64,000 nt of DNA from Chthonomonas sp. (GTDB lineage Bacteria; Armatimonadota; Fimbriimonadia; Fimbriimonadales; Fimbriimonadaceae). This document shows, one piece after another, positions 32,990-59,438 of this stretch. The position numbers were made by a program, and so were the translations under genes. Numbering within the stretch: position 1 is the first letter of the stretch; every line of letters starts with the position of its first letter. The stretch spans positions 1 to 64,000 of the forward strand of contig JAEURR010000005.1 of the NCBI GenBank assembly GCA_016788115.1, written 5' to 3'. A model generated the notes under the pieces. The model made no database searches and was not told the DNA's origin. It saw only the letters and a program-made list of their open reading frames with translations.

Positions 32990-32994
32990 GGTCC

Positions 32995-36724: not shown

Positions 36725-36725
36725 G

Positions 36726-38720
36726 CTACGGCAGGGTCGAGCCAAGAATCTCCAATCCGATGCGTCGCGTACGCTGCGACCAGCTAAGCCCCACTTCACG
36801 AATACCCAGAGTGTAGCCGACGAAGAAGGTCGAGTCGGTGAACTTGCTACCCGCAAACTGTTCGGTCGTAATGCCCGCTCCCAACCGGATGAGCGGCGTG
36901 ACTCGGTAGCTCGCGTCGCCATAGCCCACCAGGCGCGCCACGCCCAAGCTCTTGTTCACATTGAAGCTTGCCGAAAGACTGCCGACTTCCAACCGCGTGT
37001 ACATCGACAGCGCGTGTTGGCCCAGCAGCTTGGAGTTGAACCCGTCGTTGCGATAGTCGTACGTCAACCGAGTCGAGAGATTTCTTGCGATTTGGGTCAA
37101 AAAGGTCACTGCTCCCGTGGTGGTCAGACCCGCATTAACGTTTTTGCCATAGAGCTTGCTCACAGCGAAGCTCGCATCGACCGATGTCCGCGGCCCGAAC
37201 CGGAAGGTGTTGCTTTGCAGGCGCGACCGGACGCCGTAAGCCAACTGGGTCGAGCGCTGCGAGCCGGATCGGTACTGGTTGGCGTTTGCGGTGAGTCCCG
37301 TGTAGAATCTCGCCGGAAACCTTCCGAGTGTCGTCGGATCCTTCTCCAAAGTCATGTAGTGGCTCTGCTGGGTGAACGAGACGCCGCGCAGGCTCTTGCC
37401 CAGGCTGCCGCTATAAATGCCCGCGAACCCGGTGAACTGCCGCGACAAGTTCATCGACCCAAAGACGCTTCGGTTGGCAGGCGTATCGAGCTGGAAAGTC
37501 CCCGAAGAGCGATCATCGAACCGGAAGAACTGGCGCGCCGAGAGCCCCCAATCCTTGCGGCCCAGACTCGTCACGTCGAGCCCTCCCTCCGATTCATCGC
37601 CCTTGTTCCACTTGATTTCGTAGTCCATGAAGACCCCGCGGCTCGCGCCAGAACCGACCCCGTACCGGTTACCGATCCGCATGCGCAGCAGACTCGTCTG
37701 CCCTGGACGCATGCTGGTGTAGTACGGATAGTTCACCGCGAGCTGGCTGCCGGTCATCTCAATGAACTGGTCGCTCAGAGGCGGCAATGGACTCGAGGCG
37801 CTCAGTTGGTAGTAAGGGACCCGCAAAACCTTGGTTCCCTGGTACAGCACCGCCGCATTCTGGAATTGAATCTCTCTGCGCGGAAACGCGACGATGCGCT
37901 GGGCGGTTACGAGGGTGAGCGTTTCACTCAGGTCGCGGAAGGCGAAAGTCGTCGGGGCGAGCGGGGTCCTCATCGGCTCGTTCTTCAGCCCGTCAATCGA
38001 TACTGGCCCGCGCCCGATCCGTTCGGTGGTGTTCGCACGCAAGAACGGGAACCGCACACCGGGCTTCGAGATCTGCTCTATGCGCTCACCGATGCCCGTG
38101 CCGGTCTTCTCGCGCAGGTTGTAGAGGAGCTCGTCATACTCTGCCGATTCGCGACCGATCTTGATGCGTGCCTTGCGGGCTTTGACTTCGTAGCCCGGGA
38201 CGCTGAGTTGCAGGTCATCGGCTTCGATCTGGATATCCCGATAGCGGAGAGTTACGCCCTTGTTGGGACCGGCAGCCTCAATGACCTTCCACTCCGAGCT
38301 GTAAACCATACTCCCGCGCGAGACGATCTCGAAGTACTCCTTCGCACTGGAGAGCTGTGCCTTGCTTTCGACAAAGTCGAAGGTCATCAGTGCACTCGCG
38401 TTGAATTCGGCAGCAGTGGCCGTGATGCGCGCTCGGCCCGGCGACGCGCTGGCCACTAGCAGTGCGCTGGCAAAACCGTTGACCGTCGTTAGGACGTTCT
38501 GTCGGAACGACCCGAGGTTCGTGTCGAAGAGGATCTGGGTGCCGTCCGGCACCAGCGCTCCGCGGTTGTCCCGCACCTCTGCTTTGATGGTAATGGTGCT
38601 GCGACCGTTGGCGACCTCGACGGTTGGGAAGGCAGTGAGTGTGATGACGCCCTCGCGCCCAAAAGCCAAGCAGACTGCAAGCGTCAGGACGAGGCAAGCG
38701 AGAATACGGGCGATCGACAT
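36726..38720 (-). CDS. invasin-type Ig domain fused to an LptD/OstA-like outer-membrane barrel
   Basis: 664 residues from ATG 38718-38720. Signal peptide (ARILACLVLTLAVCLAFG). Residues 25-115 form a bacterial Ig-like (Big_1) domain, with GALVPDGTQILFDTNLGSF and PGRARITATAAEFNASALM. Residues 125-190 look like the OstA/LptA beta-jellyroll (LRYRDIQIEADDLQLSVPGY). The rest is a beta-barrel of many strands, ending VGLSWSQRTRRIGLEILG. LptD inserts lipopolysaccharide into the outer membrane; whether this is the main LptD or a relative with an extra Ig domain is unknown. The next gene overlaps its end. Confidence 0.65.
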   Translation of the reverse strand: MSIARILACLVLTLAVCLAFGREGVITLTAFPTVEVANGRSTITIKAEVRDNRGALVPDGTQILFDTNLGSFRQNVLTTVNGFASALLVASASPGRARITATAAEFNASALMTFDFVESKAQLSSAKEYFEIVSRGSMVYSSEWKVIEAAGPNKGVTLRYRDIQIEADDLQLSVPGYEVKARKARIKIGRESAEYDELLYNLREKTGTGIGERIEQISKPGVRFPFLRANTTERIGRGPVSIDGLKNEPMRTPLAPTTFAFRDLSETLTLVTAQRIVAFPRREIQFQNAAVLYQGTKVLRVPYYQLSASSPLPPLSDQFIEMTGSQLAVNYPYYTSMRPGQTSLLRMRIGNRYGVGSGASRGVFMDYEIKWNKGDESEGGLDVTSLGRKDWGLSARQFFRFDDRSSGTFQLDTPANRSVFGSMNLSRQFTGFAGIYSGSLGKSLRGVSFTQQSHYMTLEKDPTTLGRFPARFYTGLTANANQYRSGSQRSTQLAYGVRSRLQSNTFRFGPRTSVDASFAVSKLYGKNVNAGLTTTGAVTFLTQIARNLSTRLTYDYRNDGFNSKLLGQHALSMYTRLEVGSLSASFNVNKSLGVARLVGYGDASYRVTPLIRLGAGITTEQFAGSKFTDSTFFVGYTLGIREVGLSWSQRTRRIGLEILGSTLP

Positions 38721-41770: not shown

Positions 41771-43681
41771 CTAGGGGCTGGGTGGATTCACCGGTCTTTT
41801 GAATTTCCTTGCACCGCTGTAGGTGTAAGTCGTATTCTCAGCCGCGTTTCGCACCCCAACTCGCCAGTAGATGTCCGTGATTCCAGTGAATCCCTGATTC
41901 ACCGCCACTGCCCCAGGCGTCGAGACGGTACCCACTGCCGAAGTGTCCGTAAATCGGGACACGGTCAGTGTGTTGTTCGACGGGAACAGAGGATCGGACG
42001 AGAACTGCAGGATGTACTCGATGGGGATCGTGCTACCCGAACGGCGCATCGATTCGAATCGGAACACCGTCGGCACTGCCAGAGTAACCGCATCGTCCGG
42101 AGCCGTCAAAGTCGGCTGCCGGAACGGAGTGATCGTACTGTTCATGACCTTACGAGGGGTCACGCCGTAGCAGTAGTCCGCGCCGGTCGAGCCAGAAGTG
42201 CTACCCGTGCCGCCGCTGGTCGAACCTGTGCCGCCACTCGTCGAACCCGTGCCGCCACTGGTCGTGCCCGTGCCGCCACTGGTCGAACCGGTGCCACCGC
42301 TAGTCGTGCCTGTGCCGCCACTGGTCGTGCCTGTGCCGCCACTGGTCGTGCCGCCACCGTTTCCACCAGCATCTGGGCTATCCAGAGCGCTCGTGCGGTA
42401 GATCAGCTCGATCGAGTACTGATAAGGTACGCCCGAAGCGAGAGTTGCAGGAGTCGCCGCTGCTCCGCCACCCGATGGACCGTTACACAGTCCGGGGATC
42501 GCATCGCGCATGTCGTACCAAGGAGCGATCAGGGTGTTGAGACCGTCATCCACCGCGCTCGTTGCACGGCCGTCGACGACCATGATCGGGCCGGTGGCCA
42601 CGTCATTGCGCCAGATCTGCCACTGGAATCGATAGGGCTCCTTGATGAAGGCGTCCGGTCGCCAGCTAAGCTGGATCGCGAGGCGCGTATCATTGGCCGG
42701 CGGGAGCAGGCTAGCCGACAGATCCGTAATCGTGTTGTTATTGGAACTGCGACCGCTTCCTAGCAGAAAGACCGCAAGTCCGAGCACGAGAAGGACGGTG
42801 ATGATGGCCGAGGCGTTACCGCTCTTGCGATCACGCACGACGTCGCCGCCAGTCCATCCGGATTTCAGCTCAGGAACCTTGAAGACGACCTGAACGCGGT
42901 CGCCCGGTTGAACGCCACGAACCGACTTGCCCACGCGAACGAAGGCCGAATCCGGCTCAACGTCGGCGATCGTGCCGCTCGCAACCTGATTTTGGCCACG
43001 GGTCACGATGACTTCTTGACCGTTCTGGAAACCAGAGCGCGAACCTTGATTAATAAGAGCGTTCTTGTCGGTCGTATTCAGAACCGTCGCCTTCGGCAGC
43101 GTATTCGAGTTGATCGAACTCACTGCCTGGAATGCTGCTTGTGCAAGCGCGTCATTGATCAGCGTGCCGTTGTCCACATCGCCCGTTCGTACGGCCGACA
43201 TGCCCTTCAGAGCCGCGCCATTGACGACGGTGCCCGAAGCGATGTCGCGCACGATGACGCGAAGCTTGACTTCACCACGCTTGCCGCTGCCAGCGTCCAC
43301 CACGCGGGTGTCCACGACTTCGCCAGAGACAATAGTAGTCGCTTGCAAAGACTGCCCCAGGCGGACCAGCTCATTCTGGTTGCCGACAGGGTTCTGGTAG
43401 CCCAACTCGGTGACGAAACGGTTGACCGTCTCGGCGAGTGCCATGTCGTACCGATTCAGCTTGGCGAATTCGGTGTTCACGAACTCGGCGGCGGTTTTTC
43501 CAAGTCCAGCCTCCGACTTCGTTCGGTCCGCGAACTCCACCACGGCCCAAGTGTCGCGCAGCTCAAGTTGCGCCTGAGCTGTTCGCGTTCCCGCGATCAG
43601 CGTCAAAAGCGGCAACACGAGTGCAAAGATCGTGAATAAGCTAATTGCCTGTCCTGTTCCAGTCTTGATGAACCGTCTCAC
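41771..43681 (-). CDS. CsgG/LpoB-like exported protein with Gly/Thr/Ser repeats
   Basis: 636 residues from GTG 43679-43681, preceded by AGGAGG. Signal peptide (LFTIFALVLPLLTLIAGTRT). Residues 45-200 match the CsgG/LpoB-type pattern: WAVVEFADRTKSEAGLG, VSGEVVDTRVVD and LRVIVRDIASG. Residues 220-275 resemble the C-terminal domain of flagellar FlgT (GQEVIVTRGQNQVASGTIAD). A membrane-like helix (AIITVLLVLGLAVFLLG) follows, then a fibronectin-like part, eight seven-residue repeats (about 42185-42352) and a last beta domain. The role at the envelope is unknown. Upstream of the FlgD-Ig protein gene. Confidence 0.7.
   Translation of the reverse strand: MRRFIKTGTGQAISLFTIFALVLPLLTLIAGTRTAQAQLELRDTWAVVEFADRTKSEAGLGKTAAEFVNTEFAKLNRYDMALAETVNRFVTELGYQNPVGNQNELVRLGQSLQATTIVSGEVVDTRVVDAGSGKRGEVKLRVIVRDIASGTVVNGAALKGMSAVRTGDVDNGTLINDALAQAAFQAVSSINSNTLPKATVLNTTDKNALINQGSRSGFQNGQEVIVTRGQNQVASGTIADVEPDSAFVRVGKSVRGVQPGDRVQVVFKVPELKSGWTGGDVVRDRKSGNASAIITVLLVLGLAVFLLGSGRSSNNNTITDLSASLLPPANDTRLAIQLSWRPDAFIKEPYRFQWQIWRNDVATGPIMVVDGRATSAVDDGLNTLIAPWYDMRDAIPGLCNGPSGGGAAATPATLASGVPYQYSIELIYRTSALDSPDAGGNGGGTTSGGTGTTSGGTGTTSGGTGSTSGGTGTTSGGTGSTSGGTGSTSGGTGSTSGSTGADYCYGVTPRKVMNSTITPFRQPTLTAPDDAVTLAVPTVFRFESMRRSGSTIPIEYILQFSSDPLFPSNNTLTVSRFTDTSAVGTVSTPGAVAVNQGFTGITDIYWRVGVRNAAENTTYTYSGARKFKRPVNPPSP
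42185..42352 (-). repeat. 21-base tandem repeat, eight units, coding for (S/T)TSGGTG
   Basis: The DNA repeats every 21 bases and encodes seven residues, TTSGGTG or STSGGTG, between two beta domains of the CsgG-like protein. The copies differ by a few synonymous or Ser/Thr changes. Such Gly/Ser/Thr stretches are flexible linkers and their copy number often varies between strains. Confidence 0.85.
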
Positions 43682-44549: not shown

Positions 44550-46124
44550 TTAGCTCTCGTCGGTCTCGGCGGCGGCGTCCGTCGTCTCTGATGTCTCTGC
44601 GGTCTCTGTTTCTTCGTCGTCGTCCGGTCGCAGAAGGCCCTTGAGCATGCCGAGGCGCTCGCCGATCGTCGCGCCACCGCTTGGCACGCGACCAACCATT
44701 GGCACATCGAAATCGTCCTCATCGTGGCGGCCACCACGGCCACCCTTCTTCTTCTTGCCAGCCGTGGCCTTGCCACCAATCCGGCCACCGCGTCGGTCGT
44801 CGTCGTACGACAACTCTCCAACCGGGCCTTCTTCGTAGCTGGCAGGAGGATCAACGGCCGTGCCCGCGCTGCGCATGCTGAGCACCATGCGGCGCTCTTC
44901 GGGACGAAGATCGATGATCACGACCTCGATCGCCTGCCCCTCGTTCAGCACGTCCTTCGGCTCGCGGATACGTCGATTCGAAATCTCGCTGACGGGCAGG
45001 AATGCTTCGGCGCCCTCAGGCAGTTTGATGAACGCGCCAGTCTGCACCAGCCGTCCGATCTCGCACGCCACACGCTGACCGATCTTGTAGTTCTCCTTGA
45101 TGAGCTTCCAAGGATCCGGGAGCACCTGGCGCAAGCCGAGGCTGATTTTGCCGTTCGTCTCGTCGAGGCGAAGGACCATCACCTTCAGCTCTTGGCCTTC
45201 CTTCAGGACTTCCTTCGGGTGGCTGATACGCATCCAGCTCATCTCACTGATGTGCAGGAGGCCGTCGATGCCGCCGAGGTCGATAAAGGCGCCGTAGTCG
45301 GTCAGTCGTCGCACCGTGCCTTCGAGAACGTCGCCTGGCTTGGTGTTGGTGAAGATCTCTTCCTTAACCTTGCCGCGTCGCTCTTCTTCCGCCTGGCGAT
45401 TGGAAAGAACGACCTTCTTTCGGTCGCGATCGACTTCAATAATCTTCAGTTCAAGCGTCTGGCCGACGTACTTCTCGATGTTTCGGAGCTTGCCCGAACC
45501 AACGTGAGTGGCGGGAACGAAACCGCGAACGCCGAGGTCAACTTCGAGGCCGCCCTTGACACGGTTCACGACGACGGCATTCACCATTTCGCCGCGATTG
45601 TGCTTGTCAAGAATCTTGTTCCAGACCTCTTCAAAGTCCGCTTTCTTCTTCGAAACGATCGGGTTGAGTTCACCACCCGATCCTTCCGGCTTCAGGACGA
45701 CGACGTGAATCTTGTCGCCAATCTGGACCGCGCCGTGCGCAGTCTCCAGCGGTTCTACAGAAAGTTCGGCCAAGGGCACCACGCCCTCTGTCTTGGTCCC
45801 CAGGTCCACAAAGACGCGGTCGTTCTCAATCTGGATAACGGTCGCTTCTACGCGGTCGCCCTTGTAAAGCTTGCGATGAGACTCAGTACCTTGGGAAGTG
45901 GTACCGCTCTCAAGCTCGGCCATTGCTGCAGCAAAAAGGTCCTCGTCGGACACTTCGGCAGCGGGGGCGGCAGGGACTGACGGGGCCGCAGGAGCGGCAG
46001 GTGCACTAGGAGTGTCCACGACAGCAGCAGGAGCTTCGGGTGCGACTTCGGTCGCAACGTTTGCCTGGGCTTCAGGCTTCTGCTCGGTCATGGACGGGGT
46101 CTGGTCGTCGGTGGTCATAGTCAT
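44550..46124 (-). CDS. rpsA: 30S ribosomal protein S1
   Basis: 524 residues from ATG 46124; another ATG at 46118 is equally close. An Ala/Pro/Glu-rich N-terminus of about 70 residues precedes four S1 (OB-fold) RNA-binding repeats: GDRVEATVIQIENDRVFVDLG, GEMVNAVVVNRVKGGLEVDL, GDVLEGTVRRLTDYGAFIDL and GQRVACEIGRLVQTGAFIKL. The C-terminus has Arg/Gly/Lys-rich and then acidic stretches. Four repeats rather than six is common outside Proteobacteria. S1 helps mRNA bind to the ribosome. There is no classical ribosome site before the start. TACAAT at about 46147-46152 (minus strand) may be its -10. Confidence 0.92.
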   Translation of the reverse strand: MTMTTDDQTPSMTEQKPEAQANVATEVAPEAPAAVVDTPSAPAAPAAPSVPAAPAAEVSDEDLFAAAMAELESGTTSQGTESHRKLYKGDRVEATVIQIENDRVFVDLGTKTEGVVPLAELSVEPLETAHGAVQIGDKIHVVVLKPEGSGGELNPIVSKKKADFEEVWNKILDKHNRGEMVNAVVVNRVKGGLEVDLGVRGFVPATHVGSGKLRNIEKYVGQTLELKIIEVDRDRKKVVLSNRQAEEERRGKVKEEIFTNTKPGDVLEGTVRRLTDYGAFIDLGGIDGLLHISEMSWMRISHPKEVLKEGQELKVMVLRLDETNGKISLGLRQVLPDPWKLIKENYKIGQRVACEIGRLVQTGAFIKLPEGAEAFLPVSEISNRRIREPKDVLNEGQAIEVVIIDLRPEERRMVLSMRSAGTAVDPPASYEEGPVGELSYDDDRRGGRIGGKATAGKKKKGGRGGRHDEDDFDVPMVGRVPSGGATIGERLGMLKGLLRPDDDEETETAETSETTDAAAETDES

Positions 46125-46187
46125 GGGAATAGGGTTGATCCCCGACATTGTACCCAAGTATTCGGCACCAAGAGATCAGCCTGAAAC

Positions 46188-47705
46188 TTATACAGGTCTT
46201 TCATCCAGCGGTCGCGCGCCCACGCCCCACGCCGTCAGACGCCCCATGTGGCGCTCCATCCGGGTCCGGAACGACTCCCAGTCCCGATCCTCCCTGGGTG
46301 ACCATAGGACTTCCGCCAGCGCACAGCCGCGAGGATAAGCCATGTACTCGACCTCGGTGGGCCCGGGCATGTACTCCGTCCAGATCTGGAACTGAGATCC
46401 GAGGACGTGGCCCACCTCCTCCTCGTTCAGTTGCGGCGGGACGGGTTCGTACCCGTACACCGTCTCCAGCGTCGCCATGCCCCCTATCGCGAGCGGCTCG
46501 GACTCCGTGTCCTCATGCTGGTAGTGGTCGAAGTAGGTCCATTTTCCAGGCGTCATCACCACGTCGTGACCCATCTTCGCTGCAGTGATTCCTCCCTCTT
46601 CCCCGCGCCAACTCATGACCGTTGCACCCGGTGCGAGCCCCCCTTCCAGGATCTCGTCCCAGCCGACCATGCGGCGACCGCGCTGGCTCAGGAACTTGTC
46701 GAGATGGCGATTGAGCCACGCTTGGACCCCGTGCACATCGGGTATGGAGTGCGCTTCCATGAGCGCGGCAATGGACTCACTCTGCTCCCACTGGGTGGTC
46801 GGGCATTCGTCCCCGCCGATGTGGATGAACTGAGACGGAAAGATACTGAGGACCTCGGTGAGCACCGTTTCCATGAACGAGATCGAAGCTGGACTCAGAT
46901 TCAAAACATGCTCGCTGACGCCAAAGGAGGTCCACACGTCAATCGGTTCCCCAGTGTTTCCTAGCTCGGGGTACGCCGCAATGGCAGCTTGCATATGCCC
47001 GGGCATATCGATTTCGGGCACGATCGTGACGCCGAGTTCGTCTGCGAATTTGACCACATCCACCAACTCCTGCCGCGTGTAGAACCCTCCATGCGGAATC
47101 CCGTCGTACCCATTGGGCTCGCGCGCGTGACCCACAACAGTTTCCTTTCGCCATGCGGCAACCTCGGTCAGTCGTGGGTAGCCCGAAATCTCCATGCGCC
47201 AGCCCTGGTCGTCCGTGAGGTGAAAATGGAACACATTCCCCTTGTGTGCGGCAATCAGCTCGATGTACTTACGCACAAACTCGATGGGCATGAAGTGCCG
47301 CGAGACGTCGAGATGAGCACCACGCCACGCGAACCGAGGTTCATCCTCGATCTCAACTCCCGGGATGGTCCCATCGCGTTGAACCAGTTGCCGGAGCGTC
47401 TGAACCGCGTGCAAGAACCCAGCCCGCCCGCTCGCCCGCACCGTCACGCCCTGGGCATGTACAGCCAGGGTGTATCCCTCGGGAGCGAGGCTCTCGTCGA
47501 GCTCCAGTCGAATACATGCGTCTTGGCTCCCGGCGCTCGTCAGAAACTGGACTCCCAGATCGCCACCGATTGTACGCTGCAGGAGCGCGATGGCATCCTC
47601 GGCCAGGGGCACGGCGACGATGCCGGTCGATGCGGTCAAACAGTAAGACTCCCCGTTCAATCGGGTGGAACGGGGAGCCGGGATGAGAGCTAATTCAATC
47701 GTTTC
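46188..47705 (-). CDS. beta-N-acetylhexosaminidase, GH20 family
   Basis: 505 residues from ATG 47705. The N-terminal GH20b-type domain is followed by the catalytic barrel. Key motifs are FHFHLTDDQGWRMEI, the catalytic Asp-Glu pair in HIGGDECPTTQW, and the Trp-rich MSWRGEEGG near the end. It removes terminal N-acetylglucosamine or N-acetylgalactosamine from glycans. No signal peptide is visible, so it should act in the cytoplasm on imported oligosaccharides. It lies 55 bases downstream of the PNGase F-like gene and probably shares its operon. Confidence 0.92.
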   Translation of the reverse strand, partial: ETIELALIPAPRSTRLNGESYCLTASTGIVAVPLAEDAIALLQRTIGGDLGVQFLTSAGSQDACIRLELDESLAPEGYTLAVHAQGVTVRASGRAGFLHAVQTLRQLVQRDGTIPGVEIEDEPRFAWRGAHLDVSRHFMPIEFVRKYIELIAAHKGNVFHFHLTDDQGWRMEISGYPRLTEVAAWRKETVVGHAREPNGYDGIPHGGFYTRQELVDVVKFADELGVTIVPEIDMPGHMQAAIAAYPELGNTGEPIDVWTSFGVSEHVLNLSPASISFMETVLTEVLSIFPSQFIHIGGDECPTTQWEQSESIAALMEAHSIPDVHGVQAWLNRHLDKFLSQRGRRMVGWDEILEGGLAPGATVMSWRGEEGGITAAKMGHDVVMTPGKWTYFDHYQHEDTESEPLAIGGMATLETVYGYEPVPPQLNEEEVGHVLGSQFQIWTEYMPGPTEVEYMAYPRGCALAEVLWSPREDRDWESFRTRMERHMGRLTAWGVGARPLDERPV

Positions 47706-47760
47706 CATCGGGTTTGCACGGCAATCGCGCCCACACAACGTGCGCGTCCGCCGCGACAGT

Positions 47761-49167
47761 TTAACCCTTGCGGTAAACGATCAGCTGAGCTTCGATGACT
47801 TGTCTGGCGGGATTACCAGGGTCAGGGCTGGTGTTCGTGTACGGCTGAATTTCGTAGCGCAGAGTTTGCGTTCCCTTCCGCAGGAGGTCCGTCACGTCGA
47901 TCTCCCACGGTTTGACTGTGTCACCGGGTGCCCAACCCGCTCGGCTAAATTTCCATGTCCCACCCTGGGGCCGGCATGGGTTCAAGTAAACGTCATCCTT
48001 CCAGAGCGTGTTCGTGAATGTCTGAGAACCGACCATTACTCTGCGCCAGAGCGGCAGAAATTCAGCCGCGTTCTCCGCATTCGGTGATTGCCCGTGTCCA
48101 GTGACCACCCATCGAAGTTCGGCCCTTTCGTTTGCGCCGATTCTAGGCAGGTTGAGCGTGGGGAGTTGAGACTCAGTCGGGTTGGTGGGATCTCCGAGGA
48201 CCACTACCCCGCTCCAAAGGTTCTGGACGTTCGTCGGGATCCAGGCTCGCTTGCCAAAGCTGAATTCCAGGTCGAGGTCAACACTCCACCCCTCGCCCCA
48301 TGTCTCGCAGACATACTCGAAGCTGGTCTTGCCCGTTAGCAGCGGCAAGAAGTCGGTCACATCCACCTTCCACTCCCAGCCCTTGCGGTAAGGGGTGATG
48401 AAGCGCAAGAGCTCAACCCTATCACCCTTCTCGGGCACCAGGAAGATCTGTCCAAGACGATCCCAGCGGTCAATCCCAGCGGCAGTAGGCCCGAGGCGGA
48501 ACGTCGCAACGACTCGTCCCACGCCACGCAGCCTCTCGGGGAGTTCAACCATTTGGTTAAATCGGTGCCGTTGCGCGTTGTTCACCTCTTGGTTAAAAAC
48601 GCTCACTTTGATGGGTTCTTCGAGGTTCACTGGACGCGAACCAAAGGTCGTAGTCGCTCCAGTCGCTTCCGCTACCTGGTAACCGCCGACCATCCAGGCA
48701 TCGAGCCGCGGCTTCATTCCCGGGACGAAGAATCGGTCGAACACCGCACTCTCTCCTACCCAAACCGAAACTTCAGAACCACCGACAACCGATTCGCTAC
48801 GAACCCGATACCGCTGCCCGGCCTCGCTTCGTACGGCAACCGGCGACAGCCTATTGGCCACTTCGCGACCGTTCCAGTGAATGGACACTTCCTGCTCCGG
48901 TCGTCCATACCAATTCCCGTCCGCATTGAACATGTCCTGGGTCTTGGGATTAAGGGAATCGAATCCAATACCGAGAAGCCCGGGTACGTTCGGCTCGACC
49001 CAGTCCGGGAGCCGGTCCGTCAGTCGACCGGCAACAAACCCGAAACCCTTCGACGTTGGCTCGGAGGCAGTGACCCACGAATACTCAACCCAGTCGCGGT
49101 ACTCGACGGGTTGGGATGTAGCCTCCGACTGGGCTAGAAGGCTTGCAAAGACAATTGGGGCGATCAT
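47761..49167 (-). CDS. PNGase F-like exported glycan-processing protein
   Basis: 468 residues. A short signal peptide (MIAPIVFASLLAQ). The C-terminal part (residues 330-468) matches the second domain of peptide-N-glycosidase F: LRWVVTGHG, NAAEFLPLW, TLWKDDVYLNPCRPQGGTW and SRAGWAPGDTV in this order. PNGase F cuts N-linked glycans from Asn. The N-terminal domain has the expected length, but I cannot place the catalytic acidic residues with certainty. It is flanked by a SARP regulator eight bases upstream and a GH20 hexosaminidase downstream. Confidence 0.65.
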   Translation of the reverse strand: MIAPIVFASLLAQSEATSQPVEYRDWVEYSWVTASEPTSKGFGFVAGRLTDRLPDWVEPNVPGLLGIGFDSLNPKTQDMFNADGNWYGRPEQEVSIHWNGREVANRLSPVAVRSEAGQRYRVRSESVVGGSEVSVWVGESAVFDRFFVPGMKPRLDAWMVGGYQVAEATGATTTFGSRPVNLEEPIKVSVFNQEVNNAQRHRFNQMVELPERLRGVGRVVATFRLGPTAAGIDRWDRLGQIFLVPEKGDRVELLRFITPYRKGWEWKVDVTDFLPLLTGKTSFEYVCETWGEGWSVDLDLEFSFGKRAWIPTNVQNLWSGVVVLGDPTNPTESQLPTLNLPRIGANERAELRWVVTGHGQSPNAENAAEFLPLWRRVMVGSQTFTNTLWKDDVYLNPCRPQGGTWKFSRAGWAPGDTVKPWEIDVTDLLRKGTQTLRYEIQPYTNTSPDPGNPARQVIEAQLIVYRKG

Positions 49168-49175
49168 GCCCTACA

Positions 49176-52100
49176 TTATCGGCCATTCGCGGGCTGAACA
49201 CTCAGGGGGGACACGTCAATGGGATCTTCAAGCCGCGTCTCTTGGATGAGGCGCTCAGCCCCCTCGAAGTCCATACCCGAGCCGAGTTGCCACCGATGCT
49301 CGGCCACACGGGGCCCAACCTTCAGGCAAGCACGGTCGCGCACTTCATCGATCAACCCATCCCACAGCGGTCCGACCAGTCTCGACTCCGATTGGTCGTA
49401 CTTCAAAGCAATCGAAAGCAACGTGAGCGCCTCGGCATCGCACCCCAAACTCTCCATCGCAGCCGCGACGACAATCAAGCGAACGATTCGGGTGAACGTG
49501 CTTTGGTTCGGGTCTTGAGACTCCACCAGCATGCGTTCTATGGCCTCGTCTGCGTAGCCCATCCGGATGCGAATCAGCGCCCAGGTGCTTAGCAACGTTC
49601 GCCCCATCCAGCCGTTCTCACGCGCGAACTCGTTGTGCATGGCTTCGTTGACCAGCGCGAGGGCCTCTTCGTACCGCGTCTGTAGCCTCCGAGTGAGTGC
49701 AAGGTTCCCCAAGGCTAGTGCCGCTTGCATAGGGTCCCCCGTCATCCGCGAGATCTTGAGTGCTTCGCTGTTCCAACTCGATGCTTCGTCCAGATGACCC
49801 AAGTCCACCGACGCATTCCCCAGCGATAGGGTGATGCGCGAGATCACGCCCGGGCTGAGGCGAGGTGCGAGCTCATATGCTCGCAGCAGCAGTTCAACCG
49901 TTTGGTTAAGCTCAAACTTGCGCATGGCGATCGACGCTTGGGTCAGGTAGTACTCGGCGACCAGCTGGGGATCGTCGCTTGCAAGCATCTTTGCTGAGAT
50001 CGGCTGAAGCCAGCGCTGCGCCTCGTCCAACTTGCCTAGCTCCACATAGGCTCTGCCTGTACGCTTCTGTGCCCGCAGGCCAGCGACGGTGTCCAACTCC
50101 TCCGCCGGAATGCTTCGCAAGATGTGCTCTCCGAACTCAGCAGCCGACTGGGGGCGACGCTGTAACAATCGGAACGCGAGCAGGCGGCAGATCGATTCGA
50201 GGGCGAGCTGATACTGCCCTTGATGTAATCGCCAATCGATGGCTTTGTTTATCTCGTGCCGCCATTGGCCAAAGATTTTGATCATCTCATAGCTGAAGTA
50301 CGGCGCGGCGCAGGCGAGGCGGTCGAAAGTGTCCGCATGAGCCGCGCTAAGTTCGTCCCGCACCTTGGCATCCAGCGAATGCCAAACCAGCCGCCGCACG
50401 ATATCGAGCACACGGAACCGAAGCTGGTCACCGTCCTCGACCGTCTGCACCAGAGCGTGATCGGCAAGCTCCCGCAAGTAGTCGGGGAGTTGGGGCTCAT
50501 GGAGAACCTCAATCGCCAAGTCCAAAGTGAAGGCTCCCACAAACACAGAGAGTCGCTCCAGGGCTCTCCTCGTCTCCGGTGCCAGGAACTGGAGCGAACT
50601 GTTGATCGCCAGGGCCAGCGATGCATGCCGATGCGAAACCGAAGGCCGTCGCTGTTTGAGCTCGTACTGATCTGCCTTGATCCGATCCAGAAGCTGTTTT
50701 GGGGTTAGGGTCCTTGCCCATGTAGCCGCCAGCTCGATCGCCAACGGAATCCCATCCAGCGCTCGAAGCAGATCGACAATCGACTCCTTGTTCCGCTGGG
50801 TGATCTGAAAATCGTGTCGGACACCTTGTGAACGAGCAACGAACAGCGCAAGCGCGGGCACCTGAATCAAATCGGTGACATCTGCGTTGGCGTCCAGGCC
50901 CCGAATCGACAGTGGAGCGATTTGCAGGTCGCGTTCTCCCTCGAACCCAATATGCACCTGCGCCGTCCCAATCACTCCAACGCCGTGTTCCGTGATGAAC
51001 TGCTGGATCTGATCGATGTGATCCGAAGTCGCTGCGTCCAGATTGTCCAGAACCAGGTAGCAGGGTTGGAATTCCGCCAACCAACTCATCAGACCGTCGC
51101 GACGTCGGTCAGGCTCCGGGACGGCATGCAACACCGTGTCGGCGATCCACTGAACTGCGTCCTCCTCCGGGCGGATGCGACTGAAGTCCACAAGAGCGAT
51201 GCCGTGCGTGTCTGCTTCCGCGAACCGACGCGAAGCTTCGGCCGCGAGGCGCGACTTTCCCACCCCAGAGAGTCCGGTGAGAATGATGACTTGCATCGAA
51301 TCGGAGCCCAGGAGCTCCAGAATGCGCCCCAACTCCTCTTCGCGTCCATAAAATCGACTCGCAAAGTTAGGCAGCTGCACTTTGGCTGGACGATTGGGCC
51401 GCTGCGGGGCGTATGTCGGGGCAGCTGGTTCTGCGACGACCGCGTACTTGGGCGCCCGACGCGTCGGCTCACGCACGTTCAGCTGCCCGAGAGCGATCTC
51501 ATAGATTTCGTTCGACCGCGCGCTGGGCGACTGTCCACTGGTCGCCAGGATCTGCTTGAGCTGCTCGAACTGCGCCAAAGAAGACTGCGCCCGACCAGCA
51601 TGCATGTACAAACGCATCAACGTGCGGTGCGCTTTTTCGTTCTGGGGAGCGTCGCGGACCCGCAAAGCGGCGTGGTGGATCGCCTTATCCAAGTCACCCA
51701 GGTTCGCGCTCGCGCGAATGACACTCTGCAACGCAATCTGATACAGGTCGGCAAGGTGGATCCGTTCGAGCGTGATCCAGGTGTCTTGGTAGCCCGCCAA
51801 AAGCTCCCCTTTGTACAATGCCACCGCGCTCTCGTAAGCGCCCATCGAGTCCTTCACGCATTGGCTCGCACGAGCCGCCTCGATGTGGCTTAGAAACTCC
51901 GCGTAATCGGTTGACACGTTGTGAGGATTGATTCGGATGGTCTGATGGTCTGCCACCAGGACCGCATCTGCCGCTCGATCCGTTGAGTGAACTTGTCGCC
52001 GCAAGCTTGAAACTGCCTGATTCAGTCGGTTGCGTACCGCTTGGAGGTCCCCATCAGGCCACAGCATGGCCGCTACGACATCCCGCGCGAACGTCTTCTC

Positions 52101-52223
52101 GGGGTGCATCGCGACATACGCCAGCAAACTGCCGGTCTTTTGTGTCTGAAAACGGTCAATGACGCGCGGCCCGAGAACCACACAAAGCCCGCCCAACAAT
52201 TCTATACGGCAGTTAGCGTTCAC
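49176..52223 (-). CDS. SARP/BTAD-type transcriptional regulator with NB-ARC-like ATPase and TPR region
   Basis: 1015 residues from GTG 52221-52223, after GAGGAGG. Residues 1-95 resemble a winged-helix DNA-binding domain (TFARDVVAAMLWPDGDLQAV). Residues 100-245 are the bacterial transcriptional activation domain (DTWITLERIHLADLYQIAL). An ATPase region follows: Walker A GLSGVGKSRLAAEAS and Walker B-like CYLVLDNLDAATS. The last 350 residues are TPR-like helices (LAEYYLTQASIAMRKFELN-type spacing). Proteins of this layout control secondary metabolism or uptake genes. It may regulate the glycan operon downstream. Divergent from uvrC. Confidence 0.82.
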   Translation of the reverse strand: MNANCRIELLGGLCVVLGPRVIDRFQTQKTGSLLAYVAMHPEKTFARDVVAAMLWPDGDLQAVRNRLNQAVSSLRRQVHSTDRAADAVLVADHQTIRINPHNVSTDYAEFLSHIEAARASQCVKDSMGAYESAVALYKGELLAGYQDTWITLERIHLADLYQIALQSVIRASANLGDLDKAIHHAALRVRDAPQNEKAHRTLMRLYMHAGRAQSSLAQFEQLKQILATSGQSPSARSNEIYEIALGQLNVREPTRRAPKYAVVAEPAAPTYAPQRPNRPAKVQLPNFASRFYGREEELGRILELLGSDSMQVIILTGLSGVGKSRLAAEASRRFAEADTHGIALVDFSRIRPEEDAVQWIADTVLHAVPEPDRRRDGLMSWLAEFQPCYLVLDNLDAATSDHIDQIQQFITEHGVGVIGTAQVHIGFEGERDLQIAPLSIRGLDANADVTDLIQVPALALFVARSQGVRHDFQITQRNKESIVDLLRALDGIPLAIELAATWARTLTPKQLLDRIKADQYELKQRRPSVSHRHASLALAINSSLQFLAPETRRALERLSVFVGAFTLDLAIEVLHEPQLPDYLRELADHALVQTVEDGDQLRFRVLDIVRRLVWHSLDAKVRDELSAAHADTFDRLACAAPYFSYEMIKIFGQWRHEINKAIDWRLHQGQYQLALESICRLLAFRLLQRRPQSAAEFGEHILRSIPAEELDTVAGLRAQKRTGRAYVELGKLDEAQRWLQPISAKMLASDDPQLVAEYYLTQASIAMRKFELNQTVELLLRAYELAPRLSPGVISRITLSLGNASVDLGHLDEASSWNSEALKISRMTGDPMQAALALGNLALTRRLQTRYEEALALVNEAMHNEFARENGWMGRTLLSTWALIRIRMGYADEAIERMLVESQDPNQSTFTRIVRLIVVAAAMESLGCDAEALTLLSIALKYDQSESRLVGPLWDGLIDEVRDRACLKVGPRVAEHRWQLGSGMDFEGAERLIQETRLEDPIDVSPLSVQPANGR

Positions 52224-52394
52224 TTACCTCCTCGTCTTAGAATAGCACCTCAACGCAAGAATGTAGAAACTTCCAATGACAGATTCTGGGAATATTCTCG
52301 GGGACCTGCAAGATTTGCTTTCATTGTCCGTCACTTTGCGAGCAACGCCAAAGAAAAGTTGTGTGAACAAGCAAGCCACAATAGAGATTCCCCG

Positions 52395-54311
52395 ATGCCT
52401 CGAAAGGACCTGCCTGAAAACATATCCGCGAAACTGCAAGCGCTCCCCGCCAAGCCCGGGTGCTATGTGTATCGCGGTGAAGCGGGCGAGGTCCTGTACA
52501 TAGGCAAGGCGATCAGCCTCAAAAACCGAGTCCGCTCGTACTTCCAAGCATCGACGCGTCACTCGGCGCGAATCGCTCGGCTCGTCCACAAGATCAGGGA
52601 TATCGAATGGATTGTCGTGGACTCCGAGGTGGAGGCGCTCGTGCTGGAGTGCAACCTGATCAAGGAGCACCGCCCACCGTTCAATGTTCGGCTTCGCGAC
52701 GACAAGAGCTATCCGTTTATCCTCGTGACAAAGGAGTCGTTCCCGCGGGTGCTCTTCACGCGCAATCCAAGACGGGCCGCAGGGAAAGTGTTCGGACCCT
52801 ACACGTCCACATTCGCGGTGCGCGAAACGCTCGGCATTCTGCACAAGGCGTTTCCACTGATCCCATGCGGCAAGAGTTGGTCAGGGAGACCAGAGCAACG
52901 ACCGTGCCTTTACTATCATCTGAAGCAGTGTTTGGCACCGTGCGCTGGCCTGGCGGACAAGGATGAATACCGAGCGATCATCGGCAGCGTCGAGAAGTTC
53001 CTCGCGGGTAATCAGGAGGCGGTAACGCTCGAACTCCGAACGAAGATGGACGCAGCTTCGGATCAATTGGACTTTGAGAAGGCAGCGACGCTTCGCGACC
53101 AACTCAAGGCGATCGAGCAGCTTCAAGAGCGGCAGAAAGTGCTCATCCCGGACGGAGAAGATCGGGACGTCATCGCGGTCGTCCGCGATGAGCGTGGATC
53201 CGCGGTTCAAATCCTGTACGTGCGGGGTGGCAAGCTCATCGGCCAGCGTCAGTTCATCCTTGACGGTTCGCAAGAAGCGGCCCCTAGTGAGGCCGTCGGC
53301 GAGTTCGTGAAGCAGTACTACTCCCAGGCGATGGAAGTACCGCGCGAAGTTTTGCTCCCGGTCGAGATCGCCGAGCGAGAGGTTGTTCAGCAGTGGCTAC
53401 GTGGCCGCCGAGGCTCAGCAGTTACCATCGAGGTCCCTGCAGGCGGCGACAAGCTCGCTCTAGTTGAGATGGCGGCGACCAACGCGGAGGAGACACTGAT
53501 TGCCATGCGCCGCGAGATGGAGACCAAGGAAGAGTGGGCCCAAGAAGCGATGGAGCAGCTCGCGGAGTGCCTGGAGCTCCCGACTCTGCCCGCGCGGATT
53601 GAGGGGTACGACATCTCAAACATCCAGGGGACCTCGCCGACCGGCTCCATGGTGGTGAGCGAGAACGGCGAACCTGCCAAAGCCGAGTATCGCCGGTTCC
53701 GAGTTCGGTTCCACCCCGAGGACCCCAACGACTTCGCGATGATGCACGAGGTGATCACCCGGCGTTGCCGTCGATATCTGGATGGAGACGAGAAGTTCAC
53801 GCGCCTGCCCGACCTGATCATGATCGACGGGGGTAAGGGCCAGCTAGCGGCCGCTCTCCAGGCTCGGGACGCACTCGGCTTGAGCATCCCCATGGTGGGG
53901 CTCGCCAAGAAGCAAGAGATTCTTTACGTCCCCATGCTTCGCCATGACGCGCCGGAAATCAAGCCGCTTGTCGGTGCCTACAAGTTTGAAGGCATCCAGC
54001 AACGTTACGATTTTCTTCCCGTTGAGCTGCCCCTAACTGCGCCGGGCCTCGTGCTGCTCCGACGGCTGCGCGACGAAGCCCACCGCTTCGCGCTGACGTT
54101 ACATCGCAAGGTGCGCGACAAGCGCATGACGGGCTCGATCCTCGATGAAATCCCCGGGGTCGGCCCGCGCAGAAGGCGTCTGCTGCTCAGAACGTTCGGC
54201 TCGGTAGACGGGATTCGCCGTGCGAGCGTAGAAGAACTCAGCAGTGTTCCAACAATGACATCAAAGCTGGCGCAGGACATCCGTGACTATCTCAATGAAG
54301 GCACAATATAA
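52395..54311 (+). CDS. uvrC: UvrABC nuclease subunit C
   Basis: 638 residues from ATG 52395. The GIY-YIG nuclease domain (GCYVYRGEAGEVLYIGKAIS), the Cys cluster CLYYHLKQCLAPC, the UVR motif (SDQLDFEKAATLRDQLKAIE), the C-terminal RNase H-like nuclease with YDISNIQG and IMIDGGKGQL, and a helix-hairpin-helix end (SILDEIPGVGPRRRRLLL) are all there. UvrC makes the two incisions of nucleotide excision repair. The frame is open upstream into the region before the divergent regulator but has no homology there. sufS begins four bases after its stop. Confidence 0.95.
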   Translation: MPRKDLPENISAKLQALPAKPGCYVYRGEAGEVLYIGKAISLKNRVRSYFQASTRHSARIARLVHKIRDIEWIVVDSEVEALVLECNLIKEHRPPFNVRLRDDKSYPFILVTKESFPRVLFTRNPRRAAGKVFGPYTSTFAVRETLGILHKAFPLIPCGKSWSGRPEQRPCLYYHLKQCLAPCAGLADKDEYRAIIGSVEKFLAGNQEAVTLELRTKMDAASDQLDFEKAATLRDQLKAIEQLQERQKVLIPDGEDRDVIAVVRDERGSAVQILYVRGGKLIGQRQFILDGSQEAAPSEAVGEFVKQYYSQAMEVPREVLLPVEIAEREVVQQWLRGRRGSAVTIEVPAGGDKLALVEMAATNAEETLIAMRREMETKEEWAQEAMEQLAECLELPTLPARIEGYDISNIQGTSPTGSMVVSENGEPAKAEYRRFRVRFHPEDPNDFAMMHEVITRRCRRYLDGDEKFTRLPDLIMIDGGKGQLAAALQARDALGLSIPMVGLAKKQEILYVPMLRHDAPEIKPLVGAYKFEGIQQRYDFLPVELPLTAPGLVLLRRLRDEAHRFALTLHRKVRDKRMTGSILDEIPGVGPRRRRLLLRTFGSVDGIRRASVEELSSVPTMTSKLAQDIRDYLNEGTI

Positions 54312-57645: not shown

Positions 57646-57677
57646 AGATTACTGCCGCGTCGTCCGCGAAAGTGTCC

Positions 57678-57683
57678 TATACT
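57678..57683 (+). promoter_or_regulatory. -10 box of a leaderless-type promoter
   Basis: TATACT lies six bases before ATG 57690, so transcription would begin at or next to the start codon. No ribosome site fits before this ATG. Confidence 0.45.
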
Positions 57684-57689
57684 CCCCAT

Positions 57690-59438
57690 ATGTTTACGGG
57701 CCTCACCCTTTCATTCTTGATGTTAGCGGCGCAAGTAGCCCCGCCAAGCATTCCAGTTGTCGAGGAAACCAGAACAACTATTCCCGGAACGAGGGTTCGC
57801 GTCACCTACGAGATACACCTCGTCAATAAGCGCGAGTCAATCCACTATATCGACATGTGTTCGAACTCGTGCAACGGACTGGTTCATCCGGCGCACGAGA
57901 AGTGCGACAATTCGTGCGACACGCATTGCGAGTCTGAGCACGCAGTCGTTCTCGAACCCAAATTTTCTCGCGGTTTCGGGGCACCAAGTTCTACCATACG
58001 GGCACTAAGCGAGCAGGCGGGGCGAGAAGAGACTGATGCTCTACTGCGAGCCATGGAGGATCGCGTGAAAGCTGCGTTCCGGCCCGGAGCTATTGAACCG
58101 GAACTGGCGCTGGCCACCGCGGCGACCGCTGTTTCTGGGCCAAGGCAGCATTTTGTGCCTTCGCCCTGTACGCGAGCTACGTGTTACATCAAGATCGATC
58201 TCTACGATGCCGAAGCAACGGTCGTGGTCACCGAGAAAGGTAAGTCCATCGCCGAAGGAGACATCAACCTTGGGGCAGTCACGATCCCCAAAGACGGACT
58301 GAGCTACTTATACAACGAACAGTGTTATTGCAGTAAGGAAGCAATTCCAGGCGATGGGTCCGCCCAAGACGCCCTCTTCTTCGGAGATCCTCCCTTGGAG
58401 ATGAAACCCGACGGCGACGCGGAGCTTCCTTATCCGTTCGGCCCAGCAAATCTCTTGCACGACCTTTCGGGCGACAACATGAACGGTCTGGACGGCACCC
58501 TCAATCCACCATTCGACCAGGGGTTCGATTGTCAGTTCAATCCCGGACTAGAATTCGTGCCCGATGATCCAGCAGTTCAGGTTCTCGTCCTCATTCTCCC
58601 TGTCGCATCCGCTCCAGAAGATTCCTTGTACGCTTCAACAGCCTTCGAGAACCTGCTCGCCCACAAGCTCTCCTTCAAAACCATGTGTACGGAGATCAAA
58701 AAGCACGAGCCGAGCCGAAAAACCAAGTTCCGCATCGCGATGCCTCGTAATCCGTTGCTTACGCGACTCGCTCAATCCATCTCGAAGCAGCGTTTCATCG
58801 GACCAACCGACCAGGCGAAGATGTGGATCGCCGCGGACAAGGCGACGTACGATCAGATTCGCAAGCGGCTCATTCCCGGGCCCACTCCGGGAACCTATTT
58901 GCGGGCGCTCAGCGATGTCGCGACCCTGGCAAATGTCAATCCTTTCAAATCACCTTTCAAGGCGTGTTTGGAACCCAAGCTCATTTCCGATTCGTCCACG
59001 CGCGATGCCGTTGAATGGTTCTTCGCGCAGCTGGAACGGCCCGAGGCAAAAGAACTAATCGACGGTTTCATGAAAGAACTCCCCACGCTTGGCAAGCTCT
59101 CCGAAAGCACAAATGAAAATGATGCCAAGCACCTTGTGAATGTTGTTCGTTCGATGGCAATCAGCAGCAACCCCAAGCTCCGTGCCGCGATGTACGACCT
59201 TCTGGAAAAGCACATCCCCAAAGCACAACGCCCCCGCATGGGAGGAATCGGAATCCTGGCTCCGCTGGGCGACGTCTTCTTCACTGAAGATGCCGCGCAG
59301 GCCGAAAGAGTCTTCAATCTCAGCACGGATTACGGAGCGTTGTCCATGATCGGACCCATGAGCGAGCCAAACCCTAAGTTGCCTGAGGCGCTTCGCACCA
59401 AGTCTATCGAGCGAGCCAAGGAAACAAAGCCAGAATGA
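57690..59438 (+). CDS. exported Cys-rich protein of unknown function
   Basis: 582 residues from ATG 57690. N-terminal hydrophobic signal (MFTGLTLSFLMLAAQ). Residues 50-80 are Cys-rich: DMCSNSCNGLVHPAHEKC and NSCDTHC, six Cys in about 25 residues, with more in CTRATCY and NEQCYCSKE. These could bind metal or form disulfides. The rest is helical with no family I recognise. Its stop overlaps the start of the amidase gene (ATGA), which suggests a cell-wall connection. Confidence 0.6.
   Translation: MFTGLTLSFLMLAAQVAPPSIPVVEETRTTIPGTRVRVTYEIHLVNKRESIHYIDMCSNSCNGLVHPAHEKCDNSCDTHCESEHAVVLEPKFSRGFGAPSSTIRALSEQAGREETDALLRAMEDRVKAAFRPGAIEPELALATAATAVSGPRQHFVPSPCTRATCYIKIDLYDAEATVVVTEKGKSIAEGDINLGAVTIPKDGLSYLYNEQCYCSKEAIPGDGSAQDALFFGDPPLEMKPDGDAELPYPFGPANLLHDLSGDNMNGLDGTLNPPFDQGFDCQFNPGLEFVPDDPAVQVLVLILPVASAPEDSLYASTAFENLLAHKLSFKTMCTEIKKHEPSRKTKFRIAMPRNPLLTRLAQSISKQRFIGPTDQAKMWIAADKATYDQIRKRLIPGPTPGTYLRALSDVATLANVNPFKSPFKACLEPKLISDSSTRDAVEWFFAQLERPEAKELIDGFMKELPTLGKLSESTNENDAKHLVNVVRSMAISSNPKLRAAMYDLLEKHIPKAQRPRMGGIGILAPLGDVFFTEDAAQAERVFNLSTDYGALSMIGPMSEPNPKLPEALRTKSIERAKETKPE

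What the first reader, a model, noticed from the sequence alone, without database searches (positions are those of the whole stretch)
46188..52223. SARP regulator, PNGase F-like protein and GH20 hexosaminidase as a glycan-processing operon
Three minus-strand genes follow with gaps of 8 and 55 bases. PNGase F releases N-glycans outside the cytoplasm and GH20 trims hexosamines. A SARP-type ATPase/TPR regulator directly upstream is an unusual controller for such enzymes.
Basis: partly seen in the sequence, partly recalled or inferred. Interest (0 to 1): 0.5.

Follow-up and report, generated by a model that had tools for sequence, protein, structure and literature searches.

The report
Sugar-linked regulator beside N-glycan-cleaving enzymes
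Three neighbouring genes encode a regulator of the type known from antibiotic control, an exported enzyme predicted to cut sugar chains off glycoproteins, and a sugar-trimming enzyme; close relatives of the regulator mostly sit beside sugar genes and share a candidate DNA switch with sugar-degrading genes.

Summary
The trio is real: SARP-STAND regulator (49176-52223), PNGase F (47761-49167), GH20 (46188-47708), all minus strand, gaps 8 and 52 bases. The PNGase keeps all three catalytic acids (D236, E288, E369); its model matches PNGase F (Z 31.7) and has an N-terminal lectin-fold domain without a Pfam match. E288 predicts type I activity; 35 of 67 aligned members have glycine there, the type II mark. 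The GH20 shows no leader.

No trio was seen in the other nine PNGase loci of the class (PNGase in 10 of 113 genomes). PNGase beside GH20 recurs in 2 of 68 relatives, both Cloacimonadota.

'Unusual controller' needs revision. This SARP falls in a clade mostly beside sugar genes (13 of 16 rows outside its genus, partly by-eye labels). Clade members carry CTAAA-N6-CTAAA upstream (11-bp repeat, the classical SARP spacing), and the same site precedes GH20, GH2, GH29, GH36-like, GH116, sugar-isomerase and sugar-transport genes in those genomes: a candidate SARP-controlled glycan regulon. At the window's trio the site is absent, and same-genus orthologues have other neighbours, so control of this PNGase/GH20 pair is plausible, not shown.

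The parts
49176..52223 (-). SARP-STAND regulator, 1015 aa: winged-helix and BTAD (aa 1-239), ATPase with GLSGVGKS (aa 317-324) and CYLVLDN (aa 388-394), TPR-like C-terminal part
   Evidence: Pfam BTAD and AAA_16 over cut-off; TPR_MalT and TPR_12 below cut-off; motifs; tree; winged-helix alignment
47761..49167 (-). Lectin-fold plus PNGase F protein, 468 aa, hydrophobic N-terminus
   Evidence: Pfam N-glycanase_C and N-glycanase_N over cut-off; phmmer 3pms 1.9e-16; AlphaFold2 pLDDT 92.3; hydrophobicity only for export
48634..49110 (-). Lectin-fold (galectin / L-type lectin) domain, aa 20-178, no Pfam match
   Evidence: Z 11.6 galectin-7, 11.3 ERGIC-53 and VIP36 for the domain folded alone; Foldseek alone weak, best E 3.9e-4; no Pfam match at E<=1
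47764..48630 (-). PNGase F double jelly-roll, aa 180-468; D236 (48460-48462), E288 (48304-48306), E369 (48061-48063)
   Evidence: 1png Z 31.7, rmsd 2.2 A, 279 aligned, 24% identity; alignment
46188..47708 (-). GH20 beta-N-acetylhexosaminidase, 506 aa from ATG, no leader
   Evidence: Glyco_hydro_20 7.2e-110 and Glyco_hydro_20b; HIGGDE at aa 296; stop codon 25 codons before the ATG and no hydrophobic stretch
52224..52391 (.). Intergenic region between SARP and divergent uvrC; presumed promoter region of the trio; weak 11-bp repeat at -78, no CTAAA-type site
44550..46157 (-). S1 domain protein, flanking gene, probably not part of the cassette
   Evidence: S1 Pfam; in G079 S1 follows a divergent gene and precedes coaE, without the trio

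Best explanation
A small glycan-scavenging cassette. The SARP-STAND protein is probably a sugar-responsive activator that works like MalT: a breakdown sugar binds the TPR-like sensor, ATP binding frees the SARP domain, and SARP dimers activate promoters (inferred). The lectin-PNGase F is exported, binds glycoproteins and frees the intact N-glycan from asparagine (fold and catalytic residues shown; export, binding and activity inferred). Released chitobiose-ended fragments are imported and the cytoplasmic GH20 splits their GlcNAc-GlcNAc core or removes terminal HexNAc (family shown; substrate and import inferred). The SARP would drive its own operon from 52224-52391 (inferred from gene order). 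In relatives of this SARP an 11-bp direct repeat, CTAAA-N6-CTAAA, ties the regulator to glycoside hydrolase and sugar-uptake genes (sequence association shown; binding not shown).
For: 8-base gap and gene order. Catalytic acids and fold. PNGase-GH20 pair also in Cloacimonadota L171 (same strand, 18 bases) and L169 (divergent), both GH20s without leader. A GH20 splitting the chitobiose left on a PNGase product has been reported (PMC9522356 passage). SARP tree: 13 of 16 clade rows outside the genus beside sugar genes. G061: SARP then GH20, same strand, 90 bases. Operator: exact site in 6 of 9 clade SARPs tested together, 0 of 31 other SARPs and 0 of 150 control genes at <=1 mismatch; 60 of 67 further sites intergenic against 9 of 20 in control genomes; glycoside hydrolase and sugar-transport genes behind them. 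MalT and GutR as inducer-activated STAND regulators (PMC10936776 passage).
Against: No other PNGase locus of the class showed the trio. Same-genus SARPs of G079 and G078 lie by pxp-like and suf-like genes. No CTAAA site at the trio (best score 1.1 against 20.6-27.2 in the training sites; 3 mismatches, usual for control genes). No sugar transporter was recognised next to the trio among the genes scanned. No GH92 in the genome, though one GH38. Two of the 10 clade-type features rest on by-eye labels (see full report).
Confidence: 0.5

Rival explanations
1. PNGase and GH20 form a glycan gene pair, but the SARP is an accidental neighbour and regulates other genes.
For: Same-genus orthologues of the SARP sit elsewhere; no CTAAA site at the trio; the single exact site of the genome lies before a 178-aa ORF on another contig; the order was not seen elsewhere.
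Against: 8-base gap, same strand; clade habit of sitting beside sugar genes; SARP next to GH20 also in G061 and, divergently, in G021.
Confidence: 0.3
2. The three genes are chance neighbours of a longer run that includes S1 and coaE; the PNGase-like protein serves the cell's own envelope and the GH20 serves cell-wall recycling.
For: Run continues into S1 and coaE with short gaps; GH20 lacks a leader; PNGase genes are described as mostly orphans (PMC12381499 passage).
Against: In G079 S1-coaE stands without the trio; PNGase-GH20 pairing in Cloacimonadota and other glycan genes beside relatives.
Confidence: 0.15
3. CTAAA-N6-CTAAA is not a SARP operator but a site of another regulator or a promoter element that happens to lie near clade SARPs.
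For: No genome-wide excess over the reversed pattern; seven of 56 genes behind the sites are pilin-like; at many sugar genes of G009-G011 the repeat is inverted relative to its orientation at SARP promoters.
Against: Exact sites before clade SARPs in four genera (g2, g6, g17, g23), none at <=1 mismatch before 31 other SARPs or 150 control genes; same 11-bp period as known SARP operators (PMC5930380 passages); near-identical DNA-binding helix across the clade.
Confidence: 0.25

Closest known systems
PNGase F of Elizabethkingia meningoseptica (1pnf, 1png, 3pms)
   Same: Double jelly-roll domain, D60/E118/E206 equivalents, type I residue
   Different: 24% identity; extra N-terminal lectin-fold domain; most cysteines absent (2 Cys); neighbours differ
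PNGase F-II and Bacteroides group 2 PNGases (4r4x, 7zgn)
   Same: Two-domain PNGases with an N-terminal domain
   Different: Their N-terminal domain is the bowl-like NBL of unique structure and position 118 is Gly (PMC9522356 section 5); here a lectin fold and Glu
AfsR and PimR (SARP-STAND / SARP-LAL regulators of Streptomyces)
   Same: SARP domain plus ATPase plus TPR-like part; 11-bp direct-repeat operators in the clade
   Different: Linked to sugar genes rather than antibiotic clusters; far below the AfsR equivalog cut-off (43.8 of 1430 bits)
MalT and GutR (STAND sugar regulators)
   Same: Proposed mode of action: inducer then ATP (PMC10936776 passage)
   Different: Works-like claim only; here the DNA-binding part is an N-terminal SARP domain
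PNGase operons such as PNGaseRz of Runella zeae
   Same: PNGase encoded with glycan-trimming enzymes (PMC12381499 passage)
   Different: There fucosidases, mannosidase, GH18 and asparaginase; here GH20 and a SARP

Membership tests
PNGase F | Pfam N-glycanase_N and N-glycanase_C over cut-off | tested here: met
   32.9 of 22.4 and 59.5 of 25 bits
PNGase F | Catalytic D60, E206 and E118 | tested here: met
   D236, E369, E288
PNGase F | Double jelly-roll fold | tested here: met
   1png Z 31.7, rmsd 2.2, 279 aligned
PNGase F | Release of N-glycans from protein | not testable with these tools
   No assay
PNGase type II | Gly at the E118 position | tested here: not met
   E288
L-type lectin or galectin | Lectin jelly-roll fold in aa 20-178 | tested here: met
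   Z about 11 to ERGIC-53, VIP36, galectins and CBM66, tied; a shared fold shows no function
L-type lectin or galectin | Sugar binding | not testable with these tools
   D70 in 58 of 62 and N or D at 73 in 57 of 62 aligned members with a letter; correspondence to lectin metal-site residues is recalled
SARP-STAND regulator | SARP domain (winged helix plus BTAD) | tested here: met
   BTAD 61 of 22.1 bits; winged-helix part by alignment
SARP-STAND regulator | P-loop ATPase | tested here: met
   AAA_16 39.2 of 32.6 bits; motifs
SARP-STAND regulator | TPR sensor | tested here: inconclusive
   TPR_MalT 31.5 of 45 and TPR_12 25.7 of 30.1 bits, below cut-off
SARP-STAND regulator | Direct-repeat operator at the target promoter | tested here: inconclusive
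   CTAAA type absent at the trio; a weak other 11-bp repeat at -78, reached by 17 of 500 shuffles
AfsR (NCBIfam equivalog) | Score over cut-off | tested here: not met
   43.8 of 1430 bits
GH20 | Catalytic domain and Asp-Glu pair | tested here: met
   368 of 22.3 bits; HIGGDE
Three-gene operon | Same order in relatives | tested here: not met
   Not seen in 9 other PNGase loci of the class, some on short contigs
Three-gene operon | One transcript | not testable with these tools
   Only spacing and no terminator-like site on the minus strand

The most novel reading that the evidence does not exclude
A clade of SARP-STAND proteins in Fimbriimonadaceae are MalT-like sugar sensors that run glycan regulons through a CTAAA-N6-CTAAA operator, with GH20 a recurrent target; in the window's lineage such a regulator became coupled to a lectin-PNGase F and a cytoplasmic GH20, giving a SARP-controlled N-glycan scavenging unit.
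Probability: 0.4. Interest if true: 0.7.

Novelty: new variant of a known kind. Interest (0 to 1): 0.52.

Why it matters
SARPs are known as antibiotic activators, and whether AfsR's TPR sensor binds an inducer is said to be elusive (PMC10936776 passage). A SARP-STAND clade tied to sugar genes, with a predicted operator and targets, makes a sugar inducer directly testable. The lectin-PNGase F group (68 loci found, mostly Armatimonadota, Planctomycetota and Cloacimonadota) varies at the type I/II position and could widen the PNGase toolbox.

Tried and rejected
Conserved trio: not seen in 9 other PNGase loci of the class; one of them, L020 (G048), has a 590-aa protein with weak similarity to the SARP (21% identity, E 4.6e-5) about 4 kb upstream. 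PNGase on plasmids: one partial match, Hymenobacter, 32%. Inactive PNGase: rejected, acids present. CTAAA site at the trio: not found. Repeat finder on 52100-52480: none. Promoter/terminator scan: at or below chance. Genome-wide excess of the site: none. GH92: none. Literature: no paper held both 'SARP' and 'Fimbriimonas'; the papers listed (20 of 24, 8 of 2956, 10 of 273) include none titled as a SARP sugar regulon; only open-licence PMC text was searched. PMC4072686 (passages) does not mention SARPs.

Limits. Labels of SARP neighbours are partly by eye; pxp, suf, lgt, pilin and creatininase names in relatives are by eye or recalled unless a Pfam call is cited. Seed sets come from the loci they count, so their positive counts (10 of 40; 15 of 56) are circular; their controls were 0 of 38 and 0 of 150. 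Only 150 of 160 SARP-neighbour proteins went into. The alignments A3, A4 and A6 are meaningless and served only as containers for tallies, which show 25 of 162, 191 and 129 families. Control sites were 20 of 45, picked by hand, three from G069 and two from G068 (1.5-Mb genomes with many hits). One clade-genome site (G057:C71) was not fetched; four of the 67 are copies of one repeated sequence in G057. The 400-bp limit of the GH20 test was set after the nearness was noticed, and genome sizes are rounded. Proteins were picked by eye. No signal-peptide predictor was on hand. The scan rests on two short peptide patterns and is not exhaustive. The tree is quick, with long branches flagged by the tool.

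Full report
Observation. The three minus-strand genes are where stated. SARP 49176-52223 is followed after 8 bases by the PNGase gene 47761-49167 and, after 52 bases (ATG) or 22 (TTG), by GH20 46188-47708/47738. Pfam supports each identity over cut-off. The run continues into S1 (30 bases to its TTG start) and coaE; no terminator-like site was seen on the minus strand, in a scan that found fewer sites than shuffles. In G079 (same genus) S1 follows a divergent gene and precedes coaE, without the trio; in G009 S1-coaE stands together too, with another same-strand gene upstream. The trio thus seems to lie between two older neighbourhoods, S1-coaE and uvrC-sufS.

Genome. The assembly has 2.40 Mb and is 97% complete. 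Contig lengths identify two genomes of its family as Armatimonadetes bacterium 55-13 (G009) and Fimbriimonas sp. MAG_BO249 (G026), so Fimbriimonadaceae is inferred.

PNGase. The alignment to PNGase F keeps D60, E118 and E206 as D236, E288 and E369. AlphaFold2 on 40 sequences gave pLDDT 92.3 and pTM 0.90. Residues 180-468 match 1png with Z 31.7, rmsd 2.2 A, 279 residues, 24% identity. Residues 20-178, without a Pfam match, match galectins and the L-type lectins ERGIC-53 and VIP36. Folded alone (pLDDT 88.6) the domain gives Z 11.6 to galectin-7 (rmsd 2.4, 119 residues) and 11.3 to ERGIC-53 (2.7, 138) and VIP36 (3.0, 144), with CBM66 tied; Foldseek alone is weak, best E 3.9e-4. PNGase F-II has instead a bowl-like N-terminal domain of unique structure (PMC9522356 section 5), and accessory modules vary among PNGases (PMC12381499 passage). 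A lectin role is inference.

Specificity. In PNGase F E118 blocks core alpha-1,3-fucose; type II enzymes have glycine there and Bacteroides group 1 aspartate (PMC9522356 section 5). The window has E288. Of 67 aligned members with a letter, window included, 15 have E, 35 G, 9 D and 8 others; D236 is D in 66 of 66 and E369 is E in 69 of 69. So one group seems to span type I-like and type II-like residues, and the window is predicted type I.

Distribution. PNGase is in 10 of 113 class genomes, window included, and not in the same-genus G078 and G079. A pattern scan of named genomes gave 68 loci, mostly Armatimonadota, Planctomycetota and Cloacimonadota. GH20 lies beside PNGase in 2 of 68, both Cloacimonadota: L171 (same strand, 18 bases between) and L169 (divergent). 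Neighbours picked by eye and then tested include GH3 (L147), NAGLU (L202), a sugar-binding protein (L162), a transport permease (L168), GH31 two genes away (L157) and GH130 two genes away (L212). Most other neighbours looked unrelated, as also reported for other PNGase genes (PMC12381499 passage).

GH20. The window GH20 has no hydrophobic leader and a stop codon lies 25 codons before its ATG. Many class homologues show a hydrophobic stretch before the first conserved segment; L062, L066, L074, L078 and L099 do not (by eye). The GH20s of L169 and L171 lack one too, while the PNGases beside them have one. Exported PNGase and cytoplasmic GH20 would need import of released glycan; I recognised no transporter among the neighbours scanned. 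The genome has one GH38 match and no GH92.

SARP relatives. Matches at E<=1e-20 are in 79 of 113 class genomes. In a tree of 55 SARPs the window groups with the SARPs of G079 and G078 (SH-aLRT 99), inside a 10-row set (97) and a 19-row clade (100). Of its 16 rows outside this genus, 13 have within two genes a Gfo/Idh/MocA dehydrogenase, sugar-binding protein, sugar ATPase, isomerase or GH20 (L026-L030 except none missing: L026, L027, L028, L029, L030; L032-L036; L042, L101, L252); L037, L038 and L043 do not. Of the 36 rows outside the clade I noted three (L054, L235, L241). Labels come, partly by eye, and clade members are not independent. In the Pfam tally of SARP neighbours the top families are N_methyl (7 of 150) and AhpC-TSA (6), then Peripla_BP_4 4, GFO_IDH_MocA 4 and SBP_bac_1 3; the control 30 kb away lists AhpC-TSA 4 and AP_endonuc_2 2 and none of those three among its first 25 families.

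Counter-evidence from the genus. In G079 and G078 the orthologue follows pxp-like genes and precedes a sufC-like gene; in G079 sufS comes next but one (tblastn; other names by eye). In the window sufS is two genes from the SARP, while pxpC-like and sufC-like genes lie on other contigs. The SARP may be older here than PNGase and GH20.

Operator. Upstream of clade SARPs there are CCTAAAT-N4-CCTAAAA-like repeats of period 11. SARP operators are heptamers with 4-base spacers, 11 in all (PMC5930380 passages). The core CTAAA-N6-CTAAA occurred exactly 11 times in 2.30 Mb of fetched DNA, 10 in clade SARP loci and one (L110) between a sugar-binding-protein gene and GH20; one shuffle gave 1. In L216, L217, L218 and L253 a second site lies near a Gfo/Idh gene. 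Tested together, 6 of 9 clade SARPs have an exact site (L222, L219, L252 have 2, 3, 4 mismatches), against 0 of 31 other SARPs and 0 of 150 control genes at <=1 mismatch; of further clade rows L026, L035, L036 are exact, L115 and L116 have one mismatch, L034 and L043 two, L037 and L101 four, the window three. The motif was found on clade members, so their counts are partly by construction.

Regulon. In 36 genomes the exact site is not commoner than its reversed pattern. Of 67 further sites from clade genomes, 60 are intergenic (14.7% of those loci is), against 9 of 20 in genomes without a SARP match (Fisher 8e-5); 47 against 5 are intergenic and within 150 bp of a gene start (p 5e-4). Genes behind them include GH20, GH2 (two), GH29, GH116, GH36 (below cut-off), sugar isomerases, permeases and sugar-binding proteins; seven of 56 are N_methyl pilin-like and many are unrelated. 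None of five genes behind control sites has a sugar family. Sites within 400 bp of GH20 starts: 3 (G009, G011, G030) against 0.021 expected, or 0.13 corrected for intergenic bias (P 1.6e-6, 3e-4). In G011 the site lies 87 bases before the GH20 homology but inside the ORF as called, so its place depends on the true start; in G030 it is nearer to the divergent sugar-binding-protein gene. In many sugar genes of G009-G011 the repeat is inverted relative to SARP promoters, unexplained.

Back to the window. The helix VRNRLNQAVSSLRRQ is shared, nearly unchanged, by the window and the clade rows aligned, not by three out-of-clade rows (its role as recognition helix is recalled). Yet no CTAAA site lies at the trio and the genome has one exact site, elsewhere. 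The window SARP may use a changed operator (the -78 repeat is a weak candidate), act elsewhere, or have lost autoregulation. Control of PNGase and GH20 here rests on the 8-base gap, gene order and the habits of the clade.

Verdict. Confirmed genes; a plausible glycan cassette not seen elsewhere in this exact form; the more interesting result is the sugar-linked SARP clade with a candidate operator, shown by sequence only.

Noticed in passing
L115:4261-12985; L116:5885-9842: In the two same-genus genomes the orthologous SARP follows pxp-like genes and precedes a sufC-like gene (names by eye, except sufS by tblastn in G079).
   Followed up: partly
L345, L351, L354, L360, L363, L365, L370: Seven CTAAA-N6-CTAAA sites lie before pilin-like N_methyl genes, and N_methyl is also the commonest family next to SARPs.
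   Followed up: no
L351:2445-2471: Three CTAAA units in tandem, 11-bp period, upstream of a pilin-like gene in G028.
   Followed up: no
L116:5885-8924: The SARP of G078 is split in two ORFs (frameshift or assembly error); left as it is.
   Followed up: no
L147-L214: The PNGase F E118 position is Gly in 35, Glu in 15 and Asp in 9 of 67 aligned members, so the type I/II mark varies inside one lectin-PNGase group.
   Followed up: partly
L202:3409-5577; L147:7486-9876; L212:8335-9288: NAGLU, GH3 and, two genes away, GH130 lie by PNGase relatives.
   Followed up: partly
window 35156-36922, 41771-43681, 57672-59438: Long ORFs (588, 636, 588 aa) without a Pfam match; a protein with a similar start to 41771-43681 follows coaE in G079 (by eye).
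   Followed up: no
window 31568-33175: DUF1800 protein, 383.9 bits.
   Followed up: no
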